Source: an uncultured Roseobacter sp. (GTDB lineage: Bacteria > Pseudomonadota > Alphaproteobacteria > Rhodobacterales > Rhodobacteraceae). Taken from it: 64,000 nucleotides of DNA. Below, one piece after another: positions 17,193 to 25,141 of this stretch (positions within the stretch are counted from its first letter, which is position 1; each line of letters begins with the position of its first letter). The notes under the pieces were generated by a model. The model was not told the DNA's origin. It saw only the letters and a list, made by a program, of their open reading frames with translations, and did not search any database. The DNA lies in the NCBI GenBank assembly GCA_947488305.1, contig CANKZM010000005.1, forward strand, positions 186,001 through 250,000, read 5' to 3'. The position numbers and the translations under genes were made by a program.

Positions 17193-17373
17193 TAAAACCA
17201 GACAGATTTTCCCCCTGATGCCTGCCTCCCATTTCCAGTCTGAAATGCCTAAATACATGAGCAATTGAGCTTTCAGAGGCGTCCATCCCGGCGACCGGCA
17301 CGGCGTAACACGCCTCTGGCGCGTCAGGCGGCTAGCGCCTATATTTAAATTCGAAACTGACCAGGGGCATGGC

Positions 17374-17463
17374 ATGACGCCAACACCATTTCAAAAAATC
17401 GCTTACCTGGCATTGTTGCTGCTGATGCTTGGTGTGGCAGCGGGCCTGACGGGGGGCATGTAG
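17374..17463 (+). CDS. Small hydrophobic ORF (29 codons) at the head of the XpaC-TelA operon
   Basis: Translation gives MTPTPFQKIAYLALLLLMLG and nine further residues ending in GM, a single hydrophobic helix with a short polar N-terminus. Its TAG ends one base before the TTG of the XpaC-like gene, so the spacing suggests translational coupling. The length and composition fit a small membrane protein. No family is recognised. Conservation ahead of XpaC genes in relatives would show that it is real; a chance ORF remains possible. Confidence 0.5.
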   Translation: MTPTPFQKIAYLALLLLMLGVAAGLTGGM

Positions 17464-17464
17464 G

Positions 17465-18349
17465 TTGGCACAACGTTTTGGCGGCAAATACAGCCCTAAG
17501 GGTGCAGAGCAGCCCCAATCTCAGGCGCAATCCAACTTTGTTGCCGCTACGGTAGATCCCGTCGGCGCGCGCGCAAACCTGATGTTTCTGCCTGCAGTGG
17601 TTCTGCTTTTTACATCGCTTTTCAATGGCGCATTGAGCATGGCAGTCGGTGTCGCAGGCGCCGGTGTTTTGTCACTTGGTGCCTGGGTTTTGCGCGGAGG
17701 TTTGCAAGCGGAAGCTGCCTATCATAGCCGCAAGGTTGCCCGCCGCCCTGCGATGCCGCGCAAGATTCTCGCGGCTCTTCTGGCTGGCGCTGGGACTGGC
17801 CTTGCCGCCATCAGCCATGGAAGCGGCCTGATCGCTGCCGTCCTGTTCGGTGCCGTTGTTTGCGGCCTTCACGTCGCAGCTTTTGGCGTGGATCCGATGT
17901 CGGACAAGGGCATGGAAGGCATCGACACCCACCAACAAGACCGGGTCGCCCGCGTCGTGGATGAGGCCGATGCGCATTTGTCAGCGATGACAGACGCGCT
18001 GCGCCGGGTCGGTGACCGCACCATCAATGACCGTATGACCGGATTTCAAACCGCCGTGCGCAAACTCATCCGCACCGTTGAAGAGGATCCCAGAGATCTC
18101 ACGGCTGCGCGAAAATACCTCGGCGTCTATTTGTTGGGGGCCCGCGATGCGACCATAAAGTTTGCCGACATCTACTCCAGCAATCAAAGTGAAAAAGCGC
18201 GTGAAGACTATCTGGTGCTGCTCAATGATCTGGAACGAAATTTCGACGCAAGAACGGAAAAATTGCTGCTCGACGATCATAGCGACCTGACCGTTGAAAT
18301 CGAAGTACTAAGAGAACGACTGGACCGCGAAGGCGTGCGCCTCGACTGA
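17465..18349 (+). CDS. xpaC: XpaC-family membrane protein (5-bromo-4-chloroindolyl phosphate hydrolysis family)
   Basis: A 294-residue protein starting at TTG. Hydrophobic segments at about residues 38-75 and 100-140 anchor it in the membrane. The C-terminal half is a soluble helical domain (LSAMTDALRRVGDRTINDRM ... LGVYLLGARDATIKFADIY), the XpaC/PF10112 pattern. The name comes from an indolyl-phosphate phenotype of the Bacillus gene and does not establish an enzyme activity. XpaC and TelA genes are commonly adjacent (xpaC-yaaN in Bacillus), as here, where telA follows by 37 bp. I infer a membrane partner for TelA in an envelope-stress function. Confidence 0.82.
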   Translation: MAQRFGGKYSPKGAEQPQSQAQSNFVAATVDPVGARANLMFLPAVVLLFTSLFNGALSMAVGVAGAGVLSLGAWVLRGGLQAEAAYHSRKVARRPAMPRKILAALLAGAGTGLAAISHGSGLIAAVLFGAVVCGLHVAAFGVDPMSDKGMEGIDTHQQDRVARVVDEADAHLSAMTDALRRVGDRTINDRMTGFQTAVRKLIRTVEEDPRDLTAARKYLGVYLLGARDATIKFADIYSSNQSEKAREDYLVLLNDLERNFDARTEKLLLDDHSDLTVEIEVLRERLDREGVRLD

Positions 18350-18386
18350 CGCACTGCGCGACACTACTAATTACAAGGGAGTTACC

Positions 18387-19583
18387 ATGTCTGAAGAAAT
18401 ACGCGCAAAGGCGCAAGAAGCGCTCACAATGGTGGAAGAAGTGACCGCGGCGGTTCTGCCCGAACCCATCGAAGCAAATGCGATCGTGCCTTTGGCCGAA
18501 GCGGATGCACCCGCCAGCGCCGAGATTACCAAGCGCATGGCCGAGATCGACATGACGGATACGCAATCCATCGTCTCCTTTGGAAGCCGCGCGCAAGTCG
18601 AGCTTCAGGAAATCAGTCAAGCCATGCTTGGCGGCGTGCGGAACAAGGATGTAGGCCCTGCGGGTGACAGTTTGCGCAACATGGTGACAACGATCCGTGG
18701 CTTTTCGGTCGATGAACTGGATGTACGTCGCGAACGCAGCTGGTGGGAAAAGCTTATCGGCAAGGCAGCACCCATCGCCAAGTTCACCGCTAAATTCGAA
18801 GAGGTGCAGGATCAGATTGACCGGATCACGGACGAGCTTTTGCAGCATGAGCATACGCTTCTGAAAGATATCAAGTCGCTGGACATGCTCTATGAAAAGA
18901 CCCTGCAGTTTTATGATGAGCTCGCACTCTACATCGCAGCAGGCGAAGAAAAGCTACGAGAACTGGACGAAACCATCATACCCGAAAAGGCCGCCGAAGT
19001 AGATGCCGCGCCGGAAAATGATCAGGTCATGGTCGCACAGGAGTTGCGCGATCTTCGCGCAGCTCGGGATGATCTGGAACGCCGCGTTCATGATCTGAAG
19101 CTAACTCGACAGGTCACCATGCAGTCGCTCCCTTCCATCCGGTTGGTGCAGGAAAACGACAAGAGTCTTGTTACCAAGATCAACTCAACATTAGTCAACA
19201 CGGTGCCGCTTTGGGAAACTCAGTTGGCCCAGGCTGTGACGATCCAGCGATCATCAGAAGCTGCCAAAGCCGTACGGGAAGCCAATGACCTGACCAATGA
19301 GCTTCTAACGGCAAATGCCAAGAATCTGCGGGAAAGCAACAAGATGATCCGCGAAGAAATGGAGCGTGGTGTCTTTGACATCGAGGCCGTGAAACAGGCC
19401 AATGCCGATTTGATCGGCACGATTGAAGAGAGCCTTCAGATTGCCGACGAAGGTAAGGCCAAACGTGCGGCCGCCGAGGCGGATCTCGAAGAGATGGAAA
19501 CGAAACTGCGCGACACTCTCGCTTCCGCCAAAGCAAGAGGCGACGGCACCGGCGACACCGCGGCCACCTCGGTTCCTTCATAG
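18387..19583 (+). CDS. telA: TelA/YaaN-family toxic anion resistance protein
   Basis: A 398-residue, largely helical cytosolic protein of the TelA family (PF05816). It shows long amphipathic coiled-coil-like helices, a central SWWEKLIGKAAPIAKFTAKF segment, EHTLLKDIKSLDMLYEKTL, and the conserved SLPSIRLVQENDKSLV and TVPLWETQLAQAV blocks. The acidic N-terminus is less conserved. Family members were linked to tellurite, nisin and other envelope-stress resistance, but the mechanism is unknown. It is preceded by a GGGAGTTACC ribosome site. Operon partners XpaC, DUF2927, SPFH and zinc-ribbon proteins suggest a membrane complex. Confidence 0.9.
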   Translation: MSEEIRAKAQEALTMVEEVTAAVLPEPIEANAIVPLAEADAPASAEITKRMAEIDMTDTQSIVSFGSRAQVELQEISQAMLGGVRNKDVGPAGDSLRNMVTTIRGFSVDELDVRRERSWWEKLIGKAAPIAKFTAKFEEVQDQIDRITDELLQHEHTLLKDIKSLDMLYEKTLQFYDELALYIAAGEEKLRELDETIIPEKAAEVDAAPENDQVMVAQELRDLRAARDDLERRVHDLKLTRQVTMQSLPSIRLVQENDKSLVTKINSTLVNTVPLWETQLAQAVTIQRSSEAAKAVREANDLTNELLTANAKNLRESNKMIREEMERGVFDIEAVKQANADLIGTIEESLQIADEGKAKRAAAEADLEEMETKLRDTLASAKARGDGTGDTAATSVPS

Positions 19584-19589
19584 GAACCC

Positions 19590-20534
19590 GTGACAGCCGC
19601 AAGATCCATATGGCGCATGGGCGCGGCAATCGCCGCGCTCACCGCTCTTGCGGCGTGTGACATGGGGCTGGAATCCAGTAGCACACCACGTTCCCGACCC
19701 GCGGGCCTCGCAGAACCTGCGGTTCGCCCGACGTCCGAAGAAAGTGCGGCGCTGCGCAGCTATCTGGTTCAGGTCCAATCCGCCCAGTTAAGCCAGGGGC
19801 TGCTCCGTGAGGACGGTGGAGGACCAGATACGCCCTTCACGGCGGATATGCTGGCGCGCAACTTCGAGGAAATTGTTTTCTTCAACGAATACGCCAACGC
19901 GCTGCGGGGCAGAGGCGGCGCAAGCCCCCTGCGCCGTTGGCAGGGAACGGTACGCGTAAGCACAATTTTTGGGGCGAGCGTCCCCAAATCCCAGCAAGCA
20001 AAAGACTCAAACGATGTAAAAAACTATGCGCGGCGGCTGGCCCGGGCTACGGAACACCCGATCACAACGTTTGGGACGCCCAATTTCATCGTCGTCTTCG
20101 CAAGTGAGGATGATCGCGCCGACGCCCTGCGAGAGGCCGCAAGAAGACTTCCGGGCATTACAGAGCAAAGCCTCGCCCCCTTGCGCAAGCTCGATCAAGA
20201 TACCTACTGTGTGGTTGCCGCCTATGCGTCGGGCCGTGATGCAAATACCTACACCGCCGCCGTCGCTGTTATACGCACCGAAAACCCGGCTTTGTTGCGG
20301 CTGAGCTGTATCCACGAGGAACTGGCCCAGGGGCTTGGTCTGGCAAACGACAGCCGAACCGCCCGACCATCCATTTTCAACGATGACGACGAGTTTGCAT
20401 TGCTGACCGACCACGACGAGCTTTTGCTCAAAATGCTATACGACCCGCGCTTGCAACCCGGCATGTCAGCAAGCGAAGCCGCGCCGCTGACCCGTATCAT
20501 CGCGCGCGAACTGATATCAACCGACCCCCTCTGA
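19590..20534 (+). CDS. DUF2927 lipoprotein
   Basis: A 314-residue protein with a GTG start 6 bp after telA. The signal peptide ends with ALAAC, so C23 is the lipidation site. The mature part has the DUF2927 pattern, with RRWQGTVRVSTIFG, a LPGITEQSL stretch and SCIHEELAQGLGLANDS; that last motif contains an HE(x)2QxLG sequence resembling the HExxH-type metallopeptidase helix, although the second histidine is absent. FNDDDEFALLTDHDELLLKM follows. DUF2927 proteins are common in Rhodobacteraceae and have no established activity. It is the envelope-exposed component of the operon. Confidence 0.8.
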   Translation: MTAARSIWRMGAAIAALTALAACDMGLESSSTPRSRPAGLAEPAVRPTSEESAALRSYLVQVQSAQLSQGLLREDGGGPDTPFTADMLARNFEEIVFFNEYANALRGRGGASPLRRWQGTVRVSTIFGASVPKSQQAKDSNDVKNYARRLARATEHPITTFGTPNFIVVFASEDDRADALREAARRLPGITEQSLAPLRKLDQDTYCVVAAYASGRDANTYTAAVAVIRTENPALLRLSCIHEELAQGLGLANDSRTARPSIFNDDDEFALLTDHDELLLKMLYDPRLQPGMSASEAAPLTRIIARELISTDPL

Positions 20535-20561
20535 CGTTACCAGACCAAAGGACCGCTTATT

Positions 20562-21695
20562 ATGGGTATATTTGACTTTCTCTCCGGTGAATTCATCGAC
20601 GTCATCCACTGGACAACGGACTCACGTGACACGATGGTCTGGCGGTTCGAGCGCGAAGGACATGAGATCAAATACGGCGCCAAACTGACTGTGCGCGAAG
20701 GTCAGGCGGCAGTTTTTGTGCATGAGGGGCAGTTGGCGGATGTGTTCACGCCCGGCCTTTACATGCTGGAAACGAACAACATGCCAATCATGACCACGCT
20801 CCAACATTGGGACCACGGCTTTCGCAGCCCGTTCAAATCGGAGATCTATTTCGTCAACACAACCCGCTTCAACGATCTGAAATGGGGGACGAAAAACCCG
20901 GTAATTTGTCGCGATCCGGAGTTTGGGCCAGTGCGATTGCGCGCCTTTGGGACCTATTCCATCAAGGTAAGTGACCCCGCGCGTTTCCTGGTGGAGATTG
21001 TCGGGACAGACGGCGAATTCACAATGGACGAGATCAGCTTTCAGATCCGCAATATCATCGTGCAGGAGTTTTCTCGCACCATCGCCCGCGCCGGTATTCC
21101 AGTGATGGACATGGCCGCCAACACCCGGGAGCTGGGGCAGTTGGTTGGTAGAGAAATCAGTGCTCAACTGGCAGAATACGGCCTGACCATGCCAGAACTC
21201 TACGTGGAAAACATCTCGCTGCCGCCAGCGGTTGAAGAAGTCATGGACAAACGATCCTCCATGGGCGTGATCGGAAATCTCAACGAATACATGCAGTTTC
21301 AGGCAGCAGAAGCTCTGGGACGGGATGGTGGAGGAGCCGCGGCCATTCAAGCCGGACTTGGGGCAGGTTTGGGTATGCAGATCGGCCATGCAGCCGCGCA
21401 ACAAGTCGGCCCTTGGGGCGCAGCACCACAGCGGGCGGAGGCGCAAAACACGCAGCCCGCCGCCGTGCCGCCGCCCCTGCCCCCGGTCGAACATGTCTGG
21501 CACATTGCAGAGAACGGCGAAACCAAAGGGCCATTCTCAAAGGCGGCAATGGGGCGGATGGCGACAGAAGGTGCGCTGACCCGTTCGACGCTTGTATGGA
21601 CCCCGGGACAAGACGGTTGGCTTTCTGCAGATCGGGTGGCTGAGCTCGCACAGCTCTTCACGGTACTGCCACCTCCGCCACCCTCTGGATCGTGA
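20562..21695 (+). CDS. SPFH-domain protein (YdjI-like) with C-terminal GYF_2 domain
   Basis: A 377-residue protein. Residues 1-245 match the YdjI/virion-core-type SPFH family almost from the first residue (MGIFDFLSGEFIDVIHWTTD, EIKYGAKLTVREGQAAVFV, VRLRAFGTYSIKV, VGTDGEFTMDEIS, and SLPPAVEEVMDKRSSMGVIG). A Gly/Ala- and then Pro-rich linker (about 250-310) leads to a GYF_2/DUF4339 domain (VWHIAENGETKGPFS ... STLVWTPGQDGWLSA) likely to bind proline-rich or SPFH partners. In Bacillus YdjI helps bring PspA to the membrane. Here no PspA is encoded nearby. It follows the lipoprotein by 27 bp. Confidence 0.88.
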   Translation: MGIFDFLSGEFIDVIHWTTDSRDTMVWRFEREGHEIKYGAKLTVREGQAAVFVHEGQLADVFTPGLYMLETNNMPIMTTLQHWDHGFRSPFKSEIYFVNTTRFNDLKWGTKNPVICRDPEFGPVRLRAFGTYSIKVSDPARFLVEIVGTDGEFTMDEISFQIRNIIVQEFSRTIARAGIPVMDMAANTRELGQLVGREISAQLAEYGLTMPELYVENISLPPAVEEVMDKRSSMGVIGNLNEYMQFQAAEALGRDGGGAAAIQAGLGAGLGMQIGHAAAQQVGPWGAAPQRAEAQNTQPAAVPPPLPPVEHVWHIAENGETKGPFSKAAMGRMATEGALTRSTLVWTPGQDGWLSADRVAELAQLFTVLPPPPPSGS

Positions 21696-21792
21696 CGGGA
21701 CACCCTTTTTTCGTCGAGCCCTGTCTGGGGTAGCGCAGCCAATTGTGTGAACCAGGTCGGGAAAGAGTTAATCCACAAAGACGACTGGCGCC

Positions 21793-22902
21793 ATGAACTC
21801 TGACAGCCGACATACCGCTGAGACGCAAAGACACTTTCCCTGTGACGCTTGCGGGGCCGACTTGCGGTTTGATCCCGAGGGGGGGCAGTTGGTTTGCGCG
21901 CATTGCGGAAACACTGCGCCGCTCGTTCAAGGTCCCTGGGCGGCCGCCAAAATCCGTGAGCTGGATTTTCAATCCGCCATCAGTGGAGACCTTCCCGCCC
22001 CGGAGATGGAAGAAACCCGCGTCGCCAAATGCCCGAACTGCGCGGCCGAAGTCGAGTTTGATCCGACGGTACACGCGAGGGAATGCCCGTTTTGTGCGAC
22101 ACCGGTGGTGACGGATACGGGCGCGCACCGACATATCAAGCCCCGCGCCATCTTACCCTTTGCGTTTGATGAGGCCCGTGCGCACGGCGCAATGAATGAC
22201 TGGCTTGGGCGTCTCTGGTTTGCGCCAAACGGGCTCAATCAATACGCCCGCAAGGGGCGCAAGATGGATGGCATCTACGTCCCCTACTGGACGTATGACG
22301 CCGACACACAGTCACGCTACACAGGGGAGCGCGGCACGGTTTACTATGAGACTCGTCGCGTGATGCGTGATGGGAAATCGACAACCGTGCAGGTGGCGCG
22401 GGTGCGCTGGCGACCCGCACGGGGTCGTGTCGCGCGCTTTTTCGACGATGTTCTGGTGCTTGCGTCAAAAAGCCTGCCCAAACGCTTCACCGAAGGGTTG
22501 GCGCCATGGGACTTGTCCGCCCTCGAACCCTATACGCCAGAGTATCTTGCCGGGTTCCGCGCCGAGGGGTACGCCGTCACACTTGAGGAAGGGTTCGAAG
22601 AGGCCAAAACCATTATGGATGGCATTATCCGGCGAGATGTGAGGTTTGACATCGGCGGTGACAGGCAACGTATTCATCAGGTCGATACAGCAATAAAAGA
22701 TGTGAGTTTCAAACACATTTTGCTGCCGGTCTGGTTGGCTGCCTACAAATACAGGGGCAAAACCTACCGTTTCGTGGTGAATGGCGACACCGGCAAAGTT
22801 CAGGGGGAACGCCCCTATTCAGCGATCAAGATCGCTTTTGCGGTTCTCGCTGGCTTGATCCTTGCGGCGATCTTTGGCTATCTTTATGCCATGAACCAAT
22901 GA
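21793..22902 (+). CDS. Zinc-ribbon membrane protein (YdjG-like)
   Basis: A 369-residue protein. Two zinc ribbons open it: C17/C20/C35/C38 and C80/C83/C98/C101, both CxxC...CxxC. A central beta-rich region follows (GIYVPYWTYDADTQSRYTGE ... VARVRWRPARGRVARFFDD ... HILLPVWLAAYKYRGKTYRF), and a single C-terminal membrane helix is at about residues 343-365. This order is that of the YdjG/'PriA-like zinc ribbon' proteins that accompany SPFH proteins; annotations as helicase or primosomal protein come only from the ribbon. It is probably a membrane-anchored cytosolic adaptor working with the SPFH protein. Confidence 0.83.
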   Translation: MNSDSRHTAETQRHFPCDACGADLRFDPEGGQLVCAHCGNTAPLVQGPWAAAKIRELDFQSAISGDLPAPEMEETRVAKCPNCAAEVEFDPTVHARECPFCATPVVTDTGAHRHIKPRAILPFAFDEARAHGAMNDWLGRLWFAPNGLNQYARKGRKMDGIYVPYWTYDADTQSRYTGERGTVYYETRRVMRDGKSTTVQVARVRWRPARGRVARFFDDVLVLASKSLPKRFTEGLAPWDLSALEPYTPEYLAGFRAEGYAVTLEEGFEEAKTIMDGIIRRDVRFDIGGDRQRIHQVDTAIKDVSFKHILLPVWLAAYKYRGKTYRFVVNGDTGKVQGERPYSAIKIAFAVLAGLILAAIFGYLYAMNQ

Positions 22903-23570
22903 GCCAGATTGAGACTTTAGACGCCCTGTTGAGCACGCGATTTTCCTGCCGTGCCTTCAAACCCGATCCCGTTCCCCGCGCACAGATCGAACAGATCATC
23001 GACACCGCGAAACGAGCACCATCCTGGTGCAACGCGCAACCCTGGCAATTGGTGGTGACCGAGGGGGATGCAACCGCGCGGTTCCGTGACGCCCTTCAGG
23101 CGGAAGTCACGACTGGCCAATCACAGCTTGATTTGGAAGGCCCCTCCGAATACCCCGGCGTCTACGGCGACCGACGCCGCGCTGTCGGTTGGCAACTCTA
23201 TGATGCGGTTGGCGTTACAAAAGGCGATCGCGCTGCGTCTTCGGCCCAGATGATGCGAAACTTTGCGCTCTTCGACGCGCCGCATGTGGCCATCCTGACC
23301 AGCCCACGCGCCCTTGGCGGCTACGGCGCCATGGACAGTGGCGGTTTTGTCCTTTCCTTCCTTCTCGCCGCGCGCGCTCTGGGCATCGATACGATCCCTC
23401 AGGCCGCAATTGCGAATTATTCCGGCTTCGTGCGCGACTACTTTGATATTGCCGAGGATCGCATGATGCTTTGTGCCATCTCCTTCGGCTACGCCGATCC
23501 GGATCATCCGGCGAACAGCTTCCGCACAGAGCGCGCGCCGCAGGCAGAGATCGTGGAGTGGCGATCATGA
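22899..23570 (+). CDS. Nitroreductase-family flavoprotein
   Basis: A 223-residue FMN-dependent NAD(P)H oxidoreductase. The N-terminal [19 protein letters not shown] with the [15 protein letters not shown] block is the usual FMN/phosphate-binding start, and the [12 protein letters not shown] tail is typical. Substrates in the family range from nitroaromatics and quinones to enoates, so the physiological acceptor is unknown. It overlaps the zinc-ribbon gene by four bases (ATGA), and dtd overlaps its own end the same way, so it is transcribed as part of the long operon. Confidence 0.88.
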
Positions 23571-24013
23571 GAGCCCTCTTGCAACGCGTTTCAAGCGCAT
23601 CCGTCACAGTTGAAAATGAAACTGTTGGGGCAATCGGTCCCGGCCTATTGGTTTTCGTCTGCGCCATGCCGGGTGACACCCCCGAGACCGCTGCAAAACT
23701 GATGGCAAAAATCGCGAAGCTTCGGCTGTTCAAGGACGATGCGGGGAAGATGAACCTCAGCCTGTCTCAAACAGGGGGCTCGGCCCTTGTCGTCAGCCAG
23801 TTCACACTCGCAGCAGATACTGCACGGGGCAATCGACCGGGCTTTTCAGGAGCAGCTAAACCGGATCTGGCCGAGACACTCTATTTGCGATGTGTTGAAG
23901 AGCTTGGTGCCTTGGGTATTCCGGTTAGAACCGGGCGCTTTGGAGCGGATATGCAGGTCGCACTGGTCAACGATGGGCCTGTAACGATATGGCTCGATAC
24001 CGATGCCCCCTAA
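23567..24013 (+). CDS. dtd: D-aminoacyl-tRNA deacylase
   Basis: A 148-residue cytosolic enzyme that removes D-amino acids (and glycine from tRNA-Ala) from tRNA. The sequence runs [15 protein letters not shown] with the canonical [17 protein letters not shown] catalytic loop and the C-terminal [11 protein letters not shown] (GP-motif) block. The ATG overlaps the nitroreductase stop. It is a housekeeping proof-reading gene carried within the operon. Confidence 0.96.
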
Positions 24014-24031
24014 GTTCAACGGAAAAAACCG

Positions 24032-25141
24032 ATGACCACGCAAGATACACTAAAAGCCTTGTTCGACGCCGGTGTAACCGCAGTACGCGGGGATACGGCG
24101 GTTGCCAATTCGTTGAAGAATTCACCTGTCCCAACACCAGACCAAATCATTGCCGTCGGCAAAGCGGCAACCGCGATGGCACAGAGTGCCGCAACCCGGT
24201 TCCCTGATGCACCGCTACTGATTGTCACCAAGTACGGTCACGCGCACGGCGCCCCTGCCGGTGCCGAGGTGATTGAAGCGGCCCATCCTGTTTTGGACGA
24301 AAATTCAATCCTTGCCGGGCACCGCATCCTTGAGACCGTGACATCCATGGCATCAGGTAGCCATCTTCTGATGCTGGTCTCCGGTGGGGCCTCAGCACTA
24401 GCCGAGGCACCGGTTGACGGGCTTGATCTGAATGCCCTGAAGACCCGAGCGACAGAGCTTTTGGGCAGTGGTGCCGACATTCACGAAATGAACGCACTGC
24501 GGAAGACCTTAAGCCGCATCAAAGGCGGCAAGCTGCTAGCTCAATTCAAAGGCGCGCGCGTCACGACGCTCGCCATTTCCGACGTCGAAGGGGACGCGCT
24601 CGGCGTGATCGGGTCCGGGATCGGAGATATGCCGGACGTGGCACCCTGTGAATTTGCGCCCCAGATCGTTGCGAGTAACGCGATCGCCCGCGCTGCGGTC
24701 GTTGCGGCCGCACAGAAGCAAGGTCTGACCGTCAACACAAACGACGAAACACTCTACGATGACATCACCGCACTGGGTCCGCAGCTTGCGAAGACCCTGA
24801 TTGGCGGCGCCAAGGGGTTACATCTTTGGGGCGGTGAACCAACGGTTGTCTTACCTGCAAACCCTGGTCACGGTGGCCGCAATCAGGCGTTGGCATTGAT
24901 TATCGCCCGGGAAATTGCTGGTCAGGATGGGATTGAAGTGCTGGTCGCGGGCACGGATGGTACAGACGGGCCAACAGATGCCGCAGGCGCCATGGTGACG
25001 GGCGACACCTGGGATGCAAGCGGCGAAGATGCTTTGCGGCACGCTGATGCAGGAACCTGGCTGGATGCGCGCGGTGCATTGTTCAGGACTGGCCCGACCG
25101 GCACCAACGTGATGGACCTCGTGATTGCCTTGAAAGCATGA
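24032..25141 (+). CDS. Glycerate 2-kinase (DUF4147/MOFRL family)
   Basis: A 369-residue class-II glycerate kinase (GckA/TtuD type, frequently mislabelled hydroxypyruvate reductase), making 2-phosphoglycerate from D-glycerate and ATP in glyoxylate/serine-cycle carbon flow. Diagnostic blocks are IAVGKAATAMAQSA, LLMLVSGGASALAEAP, NALRKTLSRIKGGKL, the MOFRL-domain GGRNQALALIIA and LVAGTDGTDGPTDAAGA. It is shorter than some homologues (about 420 residues) at the N-terminus only. It follows dtd by 18 bp. Confidence 0.9.
   Translation: MTTQDTLKALFDAGVTAVRGDTAVANSLKNSPVPTPDQIIAVGKAATAMAQSAATRFPDAPLLIVTKYGHAHGAPAGAEVIEAAHPVLDENSILAGHRILETVTSMASGSHLLMLVSGGASALAEAPVDGLDLNALKTRATELLGSGADIHEMNALRKTLSRIKGGKLLAQFKGARVTTLAISDVEGDALGVIGSGIGDMPDVAPCEFAPQIVASNAIARAAVVAAAQKQGLTVNTNDETLYDDITALGPQLAKTLIGGAKGLHLWGGEPTVVLPANPGHGGRNQALALIIAREIAGQDGIEVLVAGTDGTDGPTDAAGAMVTGDTWDASGEDALRHADAGTWLDARGALFRTGPTGTNVMDLVIALKA

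What the first reader, a model, noticed from the sequence alone, without database searches (positions are those of the whole stretch)
17374..22902. Composite XpaC-TelA-DUF2927-SPFH/GYF-zinc-ribbon operon
Six closely spaced genes on one strand encode an XpaC-like membrane protein, TelA, a DUF2927 lipoprotein, an SPFH protein almost identical in layout to YdjI but with an added GYF_2 domain, and a double zinc-ribbon membrane protein like YdjG. In Bacillus subtilis xpaC-yaaN and ydjGHI (with pspA) are separate envelope-stress loci. Here the two sets are joined, PspA is missing, and a lipoprotein gives the set an envelope-facing component. I infer a membrane-bound complex sensing or repairing envelope damage, with the SPFH protein as scaffold and GYF/zinc ribbons as adaptors. 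This is the best candidate for an undescribed system in the window.
Basis: partly seen in the sequence, partly recalled or inferred. Interest (0 to 1): 0.78.

Follow-up and report, generated by a model that had tools for sequence, protein, structure and literature searches.

The report
PspA-free envelope-stress operon of Rhodobacteraceae
A six-gene set, kept in the same order across many marine bacteria, joins two membrane-protection gene sets that are separate in Bacillus and adds a surface lipoprotein shaped like a tissue-digesting protease whose metal-binding residues are gone; it is probably a membrane-damage response machine, and it is testable.

Summary
Window 17374-22902 carries six same-strand genes: a 29-aa single-TM microprotein, XpaC-like (PF10112), TelA (PF05816), a DUF2927 lipoprotein, SPFH+GYF_2, and a two-zinc-ribbon protein with a C-terminal TM. 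The order is not strain-specific: in the 80 nearest loci xpaC-telA adjoin in 78/78, telA-DUF2927 in 75/75, DUF2927-SPFH in 67/72, and the zinc-ribbon gene follows SPFH within 3.5 kb in 66/67. Four loci from three other alphaproteobacterial families keep the order without DUF2927, so the lipoprotein probably came later. The window's genome has one TelA, one XpaC and one SPFH of this type, all here, and no PspA or TPM/YdjH match.

New here: (1) DUF2927 models (pLDDT 90) as a matrix-metalloproteinase fold with HExxHxxGxxH replaced by EExxQxxGxxND: a predicted pseudo-matrixin. (2) The microprotein recurs in 76 of 79 loci. (3) A promoter-like element, TTCCCCCTAG-N18-CCTAAgTT, marks the operon in 55 of 77 loci; its exact first block occurs nowhere else in their 1.26 Mb. 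The window's own clade lacks it.

Best reading: a PspA-independent, SPFH-scaffolded envelope-integrity complex. Function is inferred from homologues, untested. New variant of a known kind.

The parts
17338..17346 (+). CCTATATTT block, possible remnant in this clade of the two-block upstream element (TTCCCCCTAG-N18-CCTAAgTT) seen in related genera
   Evidence: Read by eye; TTCCCCCTAG is absent from the whole window. Weak for the window itself.
17374..17463 (+). 29-aa single-TM microprotein gene; one base separates its stop from the xpaC start
   Evidence: relatives of 27-30 aa, all ATG, in 76 of 79 loci; hydrophobic stretch 9-27; no Pfam or NCBIfam match over cut-off
17465..18349 (+). XpaC-like protein: N-terminal membrane part, C-terminal PF10112 domain
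   Evidence: 2.5e-26; three hydrophobic stretches within residues 35-133; only PF10112 match in the genome
18387..19583 (+). TelA (PF05816), all-helical model, no TM
   Evidence: 5.6e-109; only match over cut-off in the genome; model of moderate confidence with a long helical hairpin
19590..20534 (+). DUF2927 lipoprotein (lipobox LAAC, Cys24); predicted matrixin fold without the zinc motif (E243, E244, Q247, G250, N253, D254)
   Evidence: 1.5e-62; model pLDDT 90.2; VIA-align matches; motif
20562..21695 (+). SPFH (Band_7_1) protein with C-terminal GYF_2 domain, no TM
   Evidence: only Band_7_1 match in the genome
21793..22902 (+). YdjG-type protein: two zinc ribbons, middle domain, C-terminal TM (344-362)
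   Evidence: 26% identity over 371 aligned positions to the zinc-ribbon protein of an Enterococcus SPFH/zinc-ribbon/TPM set

Best explanation
This is a conserved envelope-integrity operon of Rhodobacteraceae and some other alphaproteobacteria that can work without PspA. The zinc-ribbon protein, anchored by its C-terminal TM, recruits the soluble SPFH-GYF_2 protein to the inner face of the cytoplasmic membrane, as YdjG/YdjH do for YdjI in B. subtilis. The SPFH protein oligomerises there as a scaffold. The membrane protein XpaC and the helical protein TelA are the effector pair that protects or remodels the damaged membrane. The DUF2927 lipoprotein, a matrixin-like fold that has lost its zinc ligands, is a later addition on the outer side and probably binds envelope polypeptides without cutting, reporting to or restraining the complex. 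The microprotein is a small TM partner made together with XpaC. In most related genera a promoter-like element found nowhere else in the sequence examined drives the operon. Shown: gene order, conservation, domain content, no PspA or YdjH match in the genome, predicted fold, loss of the zinc motif, specificity of the element. Inferred: co-expression, complex formation, membrane protection, sensing.
For: Order and adjacency: 78/78, 75/75, 67/72, 66/67. In genomes drawn from the family, TelA in 132 of 148, with a DUF2927 gene downstream on the same strand, at most 534 nt between domain ends, in 115 of those 132 (from the listed rows); of the other 17, eight hold DUF2927 beside TelA in the fetched DNA. 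Outside the family: xpaC-telA-SPFH-zinc-ribbon in L117, L118, L120 and L122, with no hit there to rsuA, the nitroreductase, dtd or gckA of the window. SPFH/zinc-ribbon pair homologous to an Enterococcus set that includes TPM. Published: YdjI and PspA need YdjG/H for membrane recruitment, and loss of YdjI lowers membrane fluidity (PMC8581546, sections read); both Bacillus sets are listed in the sigma-W regulon; a Listeria lmo1967 (TelA) disruption mutant is more susceptible to nisin and tellurite (PMC12791056 passages); the Lactococcus xpaC-telA pair is in the CesSR envelope-stress regulon table and its deletion partly impairs growth under membrane-protein overproduction (PMC3139573 passages). 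Element. Pseudo-matrixin.
Against: No expression, interaction or phenotype data for this operon. SPFH and zinc-ribbon genes adjoin within 150 nt in only 31 of 69 loci, with other frames often between. XpaC is not constant: in Paracoccus ferrooxidans the 150-aa protein upstream of telA has no Pfam match. PspA presence does not anticorrelate with TelA. TelA is not related to PspA by profile comparison (probability 3.4). The TelA family name points to tellurite. DUF2927 is missing from the operon in L157, L165, L168 and L170, and L155 and L159 show only xpaC-telA, L164 only xpaC-telA-DUF2927. The element is not intact in the window's own clade, and with one mismatch allowed its first block also occurs 19 times elsewhere.
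Confidence: 0.55

Rival explanations
1. A tellurite / toxic-oxyanion tolerance operon: TelA with XpaC lowers the damage or uptake of oxyanions, and the other genes are accessories.
For: TelA family name; a review names chromosomal telA of Rhodobacter sphaeroides (same family, recalled) among tellurite-resistance elements (PMC6955997 passages; the primary paper, PMC168794, is not held).
Against: In 132 of 148 family genomes; the SPFH and zinc-ribbon partners have no oxyanion role that I know of; the Listeria TelA disruption affects nisin more than tellurite (4-fold against 2-fold).
Confidence: 0.15
2. Two independent modules (xpaC-telA and SPFH-zinc-ribbon) that lie together by inherited synteny without working together.
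For: Flanks are also partly kept (rsuA within 1.5 kb upstream in 61 of 74); SPFH/zinc-ribbon pairs stand without TelA on Vibrio, Comamonas and Tsukamurella plasmids; other frames often lie between SPFH and the zinc-ribbon gene.
Against: Order kept in other families without the window's flanking genes; tight gaps; both B. subtilis sets share the sigma-W regulon.
Confidence: 0.15
3. As the best explanation, but the DUF2927 lipoprotein is an active metalloprotease or amidase that matures or degrades an envelope substrate and so transmits the signal.
For: Matrixin fold; the Glu at the catalytic position is kept; L154 has a His at the second ligand position.
Against: Canonical HExxHxxGxxH/D in 0 of 77 operon copies and 0 of 12 further ones; the three ligand positions read E, Q and N in the window.
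Confidence: 0.08
4. An anti-phage or other conflict system.
For: The SPFH/zinc-ribbon pair lies near a gene annotated as TIR-domain on a Vibrio plasmid.
Against: PADLOC gave one weak match over five proteins (PDC-S64, E 0.009); TelA is in 132 of 148 family genomes, unlike patchy defence islands.
Confidence: 0.04

Closest known systems
Bacillus subtilis pspA-ydjGHI (SPFH YdjI, zinc-ribbon YdjG, TPM protein YdjH, ESCRT-III-like PspA)
   Same: Soluble SPFH protein with a small C-terminal adaptor domain; membrane protein with two zinc ribbons, a middle domain and a TM (architecture as described in passages of PMC11237479).
   Different: No PspA and no TPM match in the genome; the adaptor on the SPFH protein is GYF_2, not a zinc ribbon; XpaC, TelA, a DUF2927 lipoprotein and a microprotein are in the operon.
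xpaC-telA(yaaN) pairs of Bacillus, Listeria, Lactococcus
   Same: XpaC gene followed by TelA gene; an envelope-stress setting in Firmicutes.
   Different: A pair there; here joined to an SPFH/zinc-ribbon pair and a lipoprotein.
Stand-alone SPFH-GYF_2 / zinc-ribbon pair (Vibrio coralliilyticus plasmid)
   Same: Same two proteins, adjacent, GYF_2 included (44% and 38% identity).
   Different: No XpaC, TelA or DUF2927 annotated within the 7 kb shown on each side.
Matrixins (MMP catalytic domains, karilysin)
   Different: Zinc ligands replaced (EExxQxxGxxND); lipoprotein; no solved metzincin found by sequence.
Other alphaproteobacterial TelA operon: telA - lipoprotein (SBP+VWA) - xpaC - SBP-like
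   Same: TelA and XpaC with an extracytoplasmic lipoprotein.
   Different: A different lipoprotein; no SPFH or zinc-ribbon gene detected by my profiles in these loci.

Membership tests
PspA-YdjGHI system | PspA/IM30 protein | tested here: not met
   0 matches in the own genome; control rings in 9 of 14 named genomes
PspA-YdjGHI system | YdjI-type SPFH protein without TM | tested here: met
   PF13421 2.9e-101, no TM; 21% identity to the SPFH protein of the Enterococcus set, E 3e-11
PspA-YdjGHI system | Zinc ribbon at the C-terminus of the SPFH protein | tested here: not met
   GYF_2 instead; the Enterococcus relative has weak zinc-ribbon matches there (DZR 7.1e-5, DUF7130, both under cut-off)
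PspA-YdjGHI system | YdjG-type two-zinc-ribbon protein with TM | tested here: met
   The B. subtilis YdjG sequence itself was not available for comparison.
PspA-YdjGHI system | YdjH (TPM domain) membrane anchor | tested here: not met
   0 PF04536 matches in the own genome; control rings in 8 of 14
XpaC-TelA pair | PF10112 gene directly upstream of a PF05816 gene | tested here: met
   xpaC relative directly upstream in 78 of 78 loci. PF10112 rang in only 1 of 14 controls (L. lactis), not in B. subtilis.
Matrixin / metzincin peptidases (for DUF2927) | Matrixin fold of the catalytic domain | tested here: met
Matrixin / metzincin peptidases (for DUF2927) | HExxHxxGxxH/D zinc motif | tested here: not met
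   0 of 77 plus 0 of 12
Matrixin / metzincin peptidases (for DUF2927) | Peptidase activity | not testable with these tools
   needs biochemistry
ESCRT-III/PspA-like (for TelA) | Sequence-profile relationship to PspA | tested here: not met
   hhalign probability 3.4
Membrane-sculpting helical proteins, BAR / ClyA-like (for TelA) | Fold match above the helical background | tested here: inconclusive
Ter tellurite/stress systems | TerC/TerD neighbours | not tested
   no TerC/TerD search was run

The most novel reading that the evidence does not exclude
A PspA-independent class of SPFH-based membrane-repair machine: TelA is its membrane-acting helical component (in place of PspA), XpaC takes the anchoring role of YdjH, and a catalytically dead matrixin on a lipid anchor is the outside sensor, all run from a promoter element that the genome uses only once. 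DUF2927 as a whole would then be a family of bacterial pseudo-metalloproteases used as envelope sensors or adaptors.
Probability: 0.25. Interest if true: 0.78.

Novelty: new variant of a known kind. Interest (0 to 1): 0.62.

Why it matters
TelA/XpaC and YdjG/YdjI-type proteins are widespread and poorly understood. An operon that keeps both sets together through most of one bacterial family (TelA in 132 of 148 genomes, PspA over cut-off in 25 of 148) offers a clean setting to find out what TelA does, whether SPFH platforms work without ESCRT-III-like PspA, and what DUF2927 (no paper in the held library names it) is for. The pseudo-matrixin prediction, the microprotein and the operon-specific element can each be tested in a model roseobacter.

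Tried and rejected
TelA as a PspA homologue: profile comparison gave probability 3.4 for TelA and 0.1 for XpaC, against ten PspA domains from family genomes. PspA replaced by TelA in evolution: no anticorrelation over 148 genomes (22 of 132 with TelA and 3 of 16 without it have PspA over cut-off). DUF2927 by sequence: nothing convincing among solved structures (best E 0.21 by phmmer, 0.028 by profile) and no second Pfam family shared by more than 4 of the 51 aligned members; only the fold showed it. My first register for the motif, with the conserved His of HEExxQ as a ligand, was dropped when divergent members proved to lack that His. YdjH (TPM) as the gene that often lies between SPFH and the zinc-ribbon gene in relatives: the frames found there are diverse (some are on the opposite strand and may be spurious) and were not family-scanned. 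Sequence matches to solved structures for the other proteins: none for TelA (E up to 0.1), a weak GYF-region match for the SPFH protein (gliding-motility protein, 7z3c, E 0.0025), weak zinc-ribbon matches for the last protein. In one search, families other than matrixins may stand below the 50 rows shown. Foldseek's own search was never run. The microprotein's pN/pS (median 0.41 over 1006 pairs) has near-saturated synonymous sites and is weak support by itself. In the 17 family loci the microprotein pattern gave only two convincing hits (L162, L166) and one spurious locus (L161), so it is shown for the nearest loci, not for the whole family.

Limits of the counts: the 80 loci are the closest of 223 TelA relatives, so they lean to near kin; denominators leave out loci whose DNA ends too soon. 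The 77 DUF2927 copies include the window's own (L001) and leave out one over-long frame of 78; one of the 77 (L015) was later found to contain a stop in my frame and was left out of alignment A1. A1 used 49 of the 50 diverse operon copies that chose, plus the window and the paralogue. L081 shows no lipobox, probably because my start is too late. The lipobox pattern is loose. The microprotein pattern was written after seeing the first list. Of the 3 one-mismatch loci, L003 is an edge hit and not convincing. The five genomes were chosen because their locus has the element. works on listed rows only; one search's list was cut.
Full report
Check of the observation. The window region 17374-22902 contains six same-strand genes. 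One search lists five of them and one search shows the sixth, a 29-codon frame (MTPTPFQKIAYLALLLLMLGVAAGLTGGM, translated) whose stop is one base away from the xpaC start. Pfam assigns PF10112 (XpaC family), PF05816 (TelA), PF11150 (DUF2927) and PF13421 + PF14237 (SPFH with GYF_2); the last protein has only weak matches to zinc-ribbon and other zinc-binding models, one of 15 over its cut-off. NCBIfam has no family over cut-off for these five. A simple hydropathy scan gives three hydrophobic stretches in XpaC, none in TelA or the SPFH protein, one C-terminal in the zinc-ribbon protein and one in the microprotein. The DUF2927 protein starts with a lipoprotein-type signal (LAAC), as do 76 of 77 copies by a loose pattern.

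Is the set conserved? A scan of named genomes with TelA returned 80 loci, the best of 223. Their titles name roseobacter-group and related genera, or only Rhodobacteraceae, Paracoccaceae, Rhodobacterales or Alphaproteobacteria. Placing the window's proteins on them and counting adjacency where the DNA reaches far enough: xpaC within 150 nt upstream of telA 78 of 78; DUF2927 within 150 nt after telA 75 of 75; SPFH within 150 nt after DUF2927 67 of 72; zinc-ribbon gene within 150 nt after SPFH only 31 of 69, but on the same strand within 3.5 kb in 66 of 67 (not in L013); nitroreductase within 150 nt after the zinc-ribbon gene 39 of 66; rsuA within 1.5 kb upstream of xpaC 61 of 74. In genomes drawn evenly from the window's family, TelA is in 132 of 148 and DUF2927 in 142 of 149. 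From the listed rows, DUF2927 lies downstream of TelA on the same strand, at most 534 nt between domain ends, in 115 of 132. I fetched the TelA regions of the other 17. A profile search finds DUF2927 beside TelA in eight (L154, L156, L158, L160, L161, L162, L164, L167). In L157, L165, L168 and L170 it is absent although SPFH and the zinc-ribbon gene follow. L155 and L159 show only xpaC-telA. L163, L166 and L169 end too soon. So the order is the rule in the family, with exceptions. On a Paracoccus ferrooxidans plasmid telA, DUF2927, SPFH and zinc-ribbon genes are annotated in this order, but the 150-aa protein upstream of telA has no Pfam match, so XpaC is not constant.

How old is the junction? 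Of 20 TelA neighbourhoods from other families of the class, four (L117, L118, L120, L122; three families, f131, f57, f117) show the order xpaC-telA-SPFH-zinc-ribbon without DUF2927. L121 (short contig) and L123 have xpaC-telA only. The window's rsuA, nitroreductase, dtd and gckA were not found in these loci. The simplest reading is that the four-gene core predates the family and DUF2927 was inserted between telA and SPFH later. The other 14 loci and the 20 have other contexts; in L145 a gene downstream of TelA codes for a protein with GYF_2 and a weak Band_7_1 match. A separate arrangement is telA - lipoprotein with SBP and VWA domains - xpaC - SBP-like (L119, L135; domains scanned in L135 only). 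Recruitment of an extracytoplasmic lipoprotein to TelA/XpaC may thus have happened more than once (inference).

What is missing. The window's genome has one TelA over cut-off, one PF10112 protein and one Band_7_1 protein, all in this operon, no PspA match and no TPM/YdjH match; the same PspA and TPM searches ring in 9 and 8 of 14 control genomes. In the family PspA is over cut-off in 25 of 148 genomes. PspA and TelA do not exclude each other, so absence of PspA here stands but replacement is not shown.

Relation to YdjG/YdjI. I had no B. subtilis YdjG sequence. A plasmid-borne Enterococcus gallinarum locus supplies the bridge: SPFH protein, zinc-ribbon protein and TPM protein side by side, with no PspA annotated in the stretch shown. 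Our zinc-ribbon protein aligns with its counterpart over nearly full length (98 of 371 identical, E 5e-38 for the pair) and the SPFH proteins at 21% (E 3e-11). The two-zinc-ribbon, middle-domain, TM architecture is the one PMC11237479 describes for YdjG (passages); the terms TelA, XpaC and GYF have no occurrence in that paper's main text. An SPFH-GYF_2/zinc-ribbon pair stands without TelA on a Vibrio plasmid, and SPFH/zinc-ribbon pairs on Comamonas and Tsukamurella plasmids. So two modules that occur apart are joined here. In B. subtilis both are listed in the sigma-W envelope-stress regulon: xpaC-yaaN core, pspA-ydjGHI secondary (PMC3498285 passages).

Microprotein and element. Microproteins of 27-30 aa, ATG start, ending from 1 nt inside to 5 nt before the xpaC start, were found in 76 of 79 loci (pattern written). 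No family model matches over cut-off. Some 60-90 nt upstream of the microgene lies TTCCCCCTAG followed, at 18 nt in 46 and 19 nt in 4 of the 50 that fit the search, by CCTAAgTT-like sequence. Exact TTCCCCCTAG occurs 55 times in the 1,258,565 bases of the 80 loci, always 146-177 nt upstream of xpaC, against about 3 expected from base composition; of 77 loci with enough upstream DNA 55 have it exactly. Allowing one mismatch there are 59 hits at the site and 19 elsewhere. In five whole genomes, chosen because their locus has it, TTCCCCCTAG-N18-26-CCTA occurs once each, at this operon; the reversed control pattern occurs once in all (places matched by hand to the ranges). Roseobacter, Tateyamaria, the Sulfitobacter loci tested, some others (19 loci with two or more mismatches) and the window lack the first block; seven more distant loci scanned with one mismatch allowed show no hit. 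A fixed spacing and a single site suggest a dedicated promoter; which factor reads it is unknown.

Mechanism. Shown: gene order, conservation, no PspA or YdjH match, homologies, predicted fold, motif loss, element specificity. Inferred from homologues: zinc-ribbon protein recruits SPFH to the membrane (B. subtilis: PMC8581546, sections read; there YdjH rather than YdjG showed the two-hybrid contact with YdjI); TelA/XpaC protect against envelope attack (Listeria, Lactococcus; passages). Inferred only: that the two halves form one complex, that XpaC stands in for YdjH, and that the lipoprotein reports from outside. Tellurite tolerance (review passage) is the main rival. I found no paper that joins these families: XpaC, TelA and SPFH together in 0 papers, toxic anion resistance with Rhodobacteraceae in 0, and nothing of the kind among the listed papers (searches listed 20 of 33, 19 of 21 and 15 of 41). 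The library lacks most subscription journals, so a description elsewhere is possible.

Verdict. Real, conserved and, in the papers I could search, undescribed.

Noticed in passing
L133:4336-5697 (own genome, minus strand): A second DUF2927 lipoprotein-like gene (453 aa) with the same EExxQxxG motif, near genes that by eye look like a VWA protein, an M48-type protease and a MoxR-type ATPase (not family-scanned).
   Followed up: partly
L154:5082-6023: DUF2927 copy with EExxHxxGxxNH: a His at the second zinc-ligand position, possibly an intermediate between an active and a dead matrixin.
   Followed up: no
G307 contig C1:46652-66787: Seven DUF2927 matches, at least two of them pieces of one frame, clustered within about 20 kb in a genome of the same class.
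   Followed up: no
L161, L163, L166: Two XpaC-like frames in tandem upstream of telA in some family members.
   Followed up: no
L010:12628-13047, L016:11208-11741, L022:12122-12544: Similar small hydrophobic proteins (139-177 aa) recur between the SPFH and zinc-ribbon genes; frames of similar length occur there in L068 and L076.
   Followed up: no
L172:1718-9154 (Vibrio coralliilyticus plasmid): The SPFH-GYF_2/zinc-ribbon pair lies near divergently oriented genes annotated as TIR-domain and TRAFs-binding proteins.
   Followed up: no
window 22899-25141: A nitroreductase-family gene overlaps the end of the operon by 4 nt and is followed by frames that look like dtd and a glycerate kinase (names by eye except the nitroreductase); the transcript may run on.
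   Followed up: partly
L119:7838-11448, L135:4320-8827: Different TelA operon in other alphaproteobacteria: telA, a lipoprotein or secreted protein (SBP+VWA in L135), xpaC, then another protein (weak SBP match in L135).
   Followed up: partly
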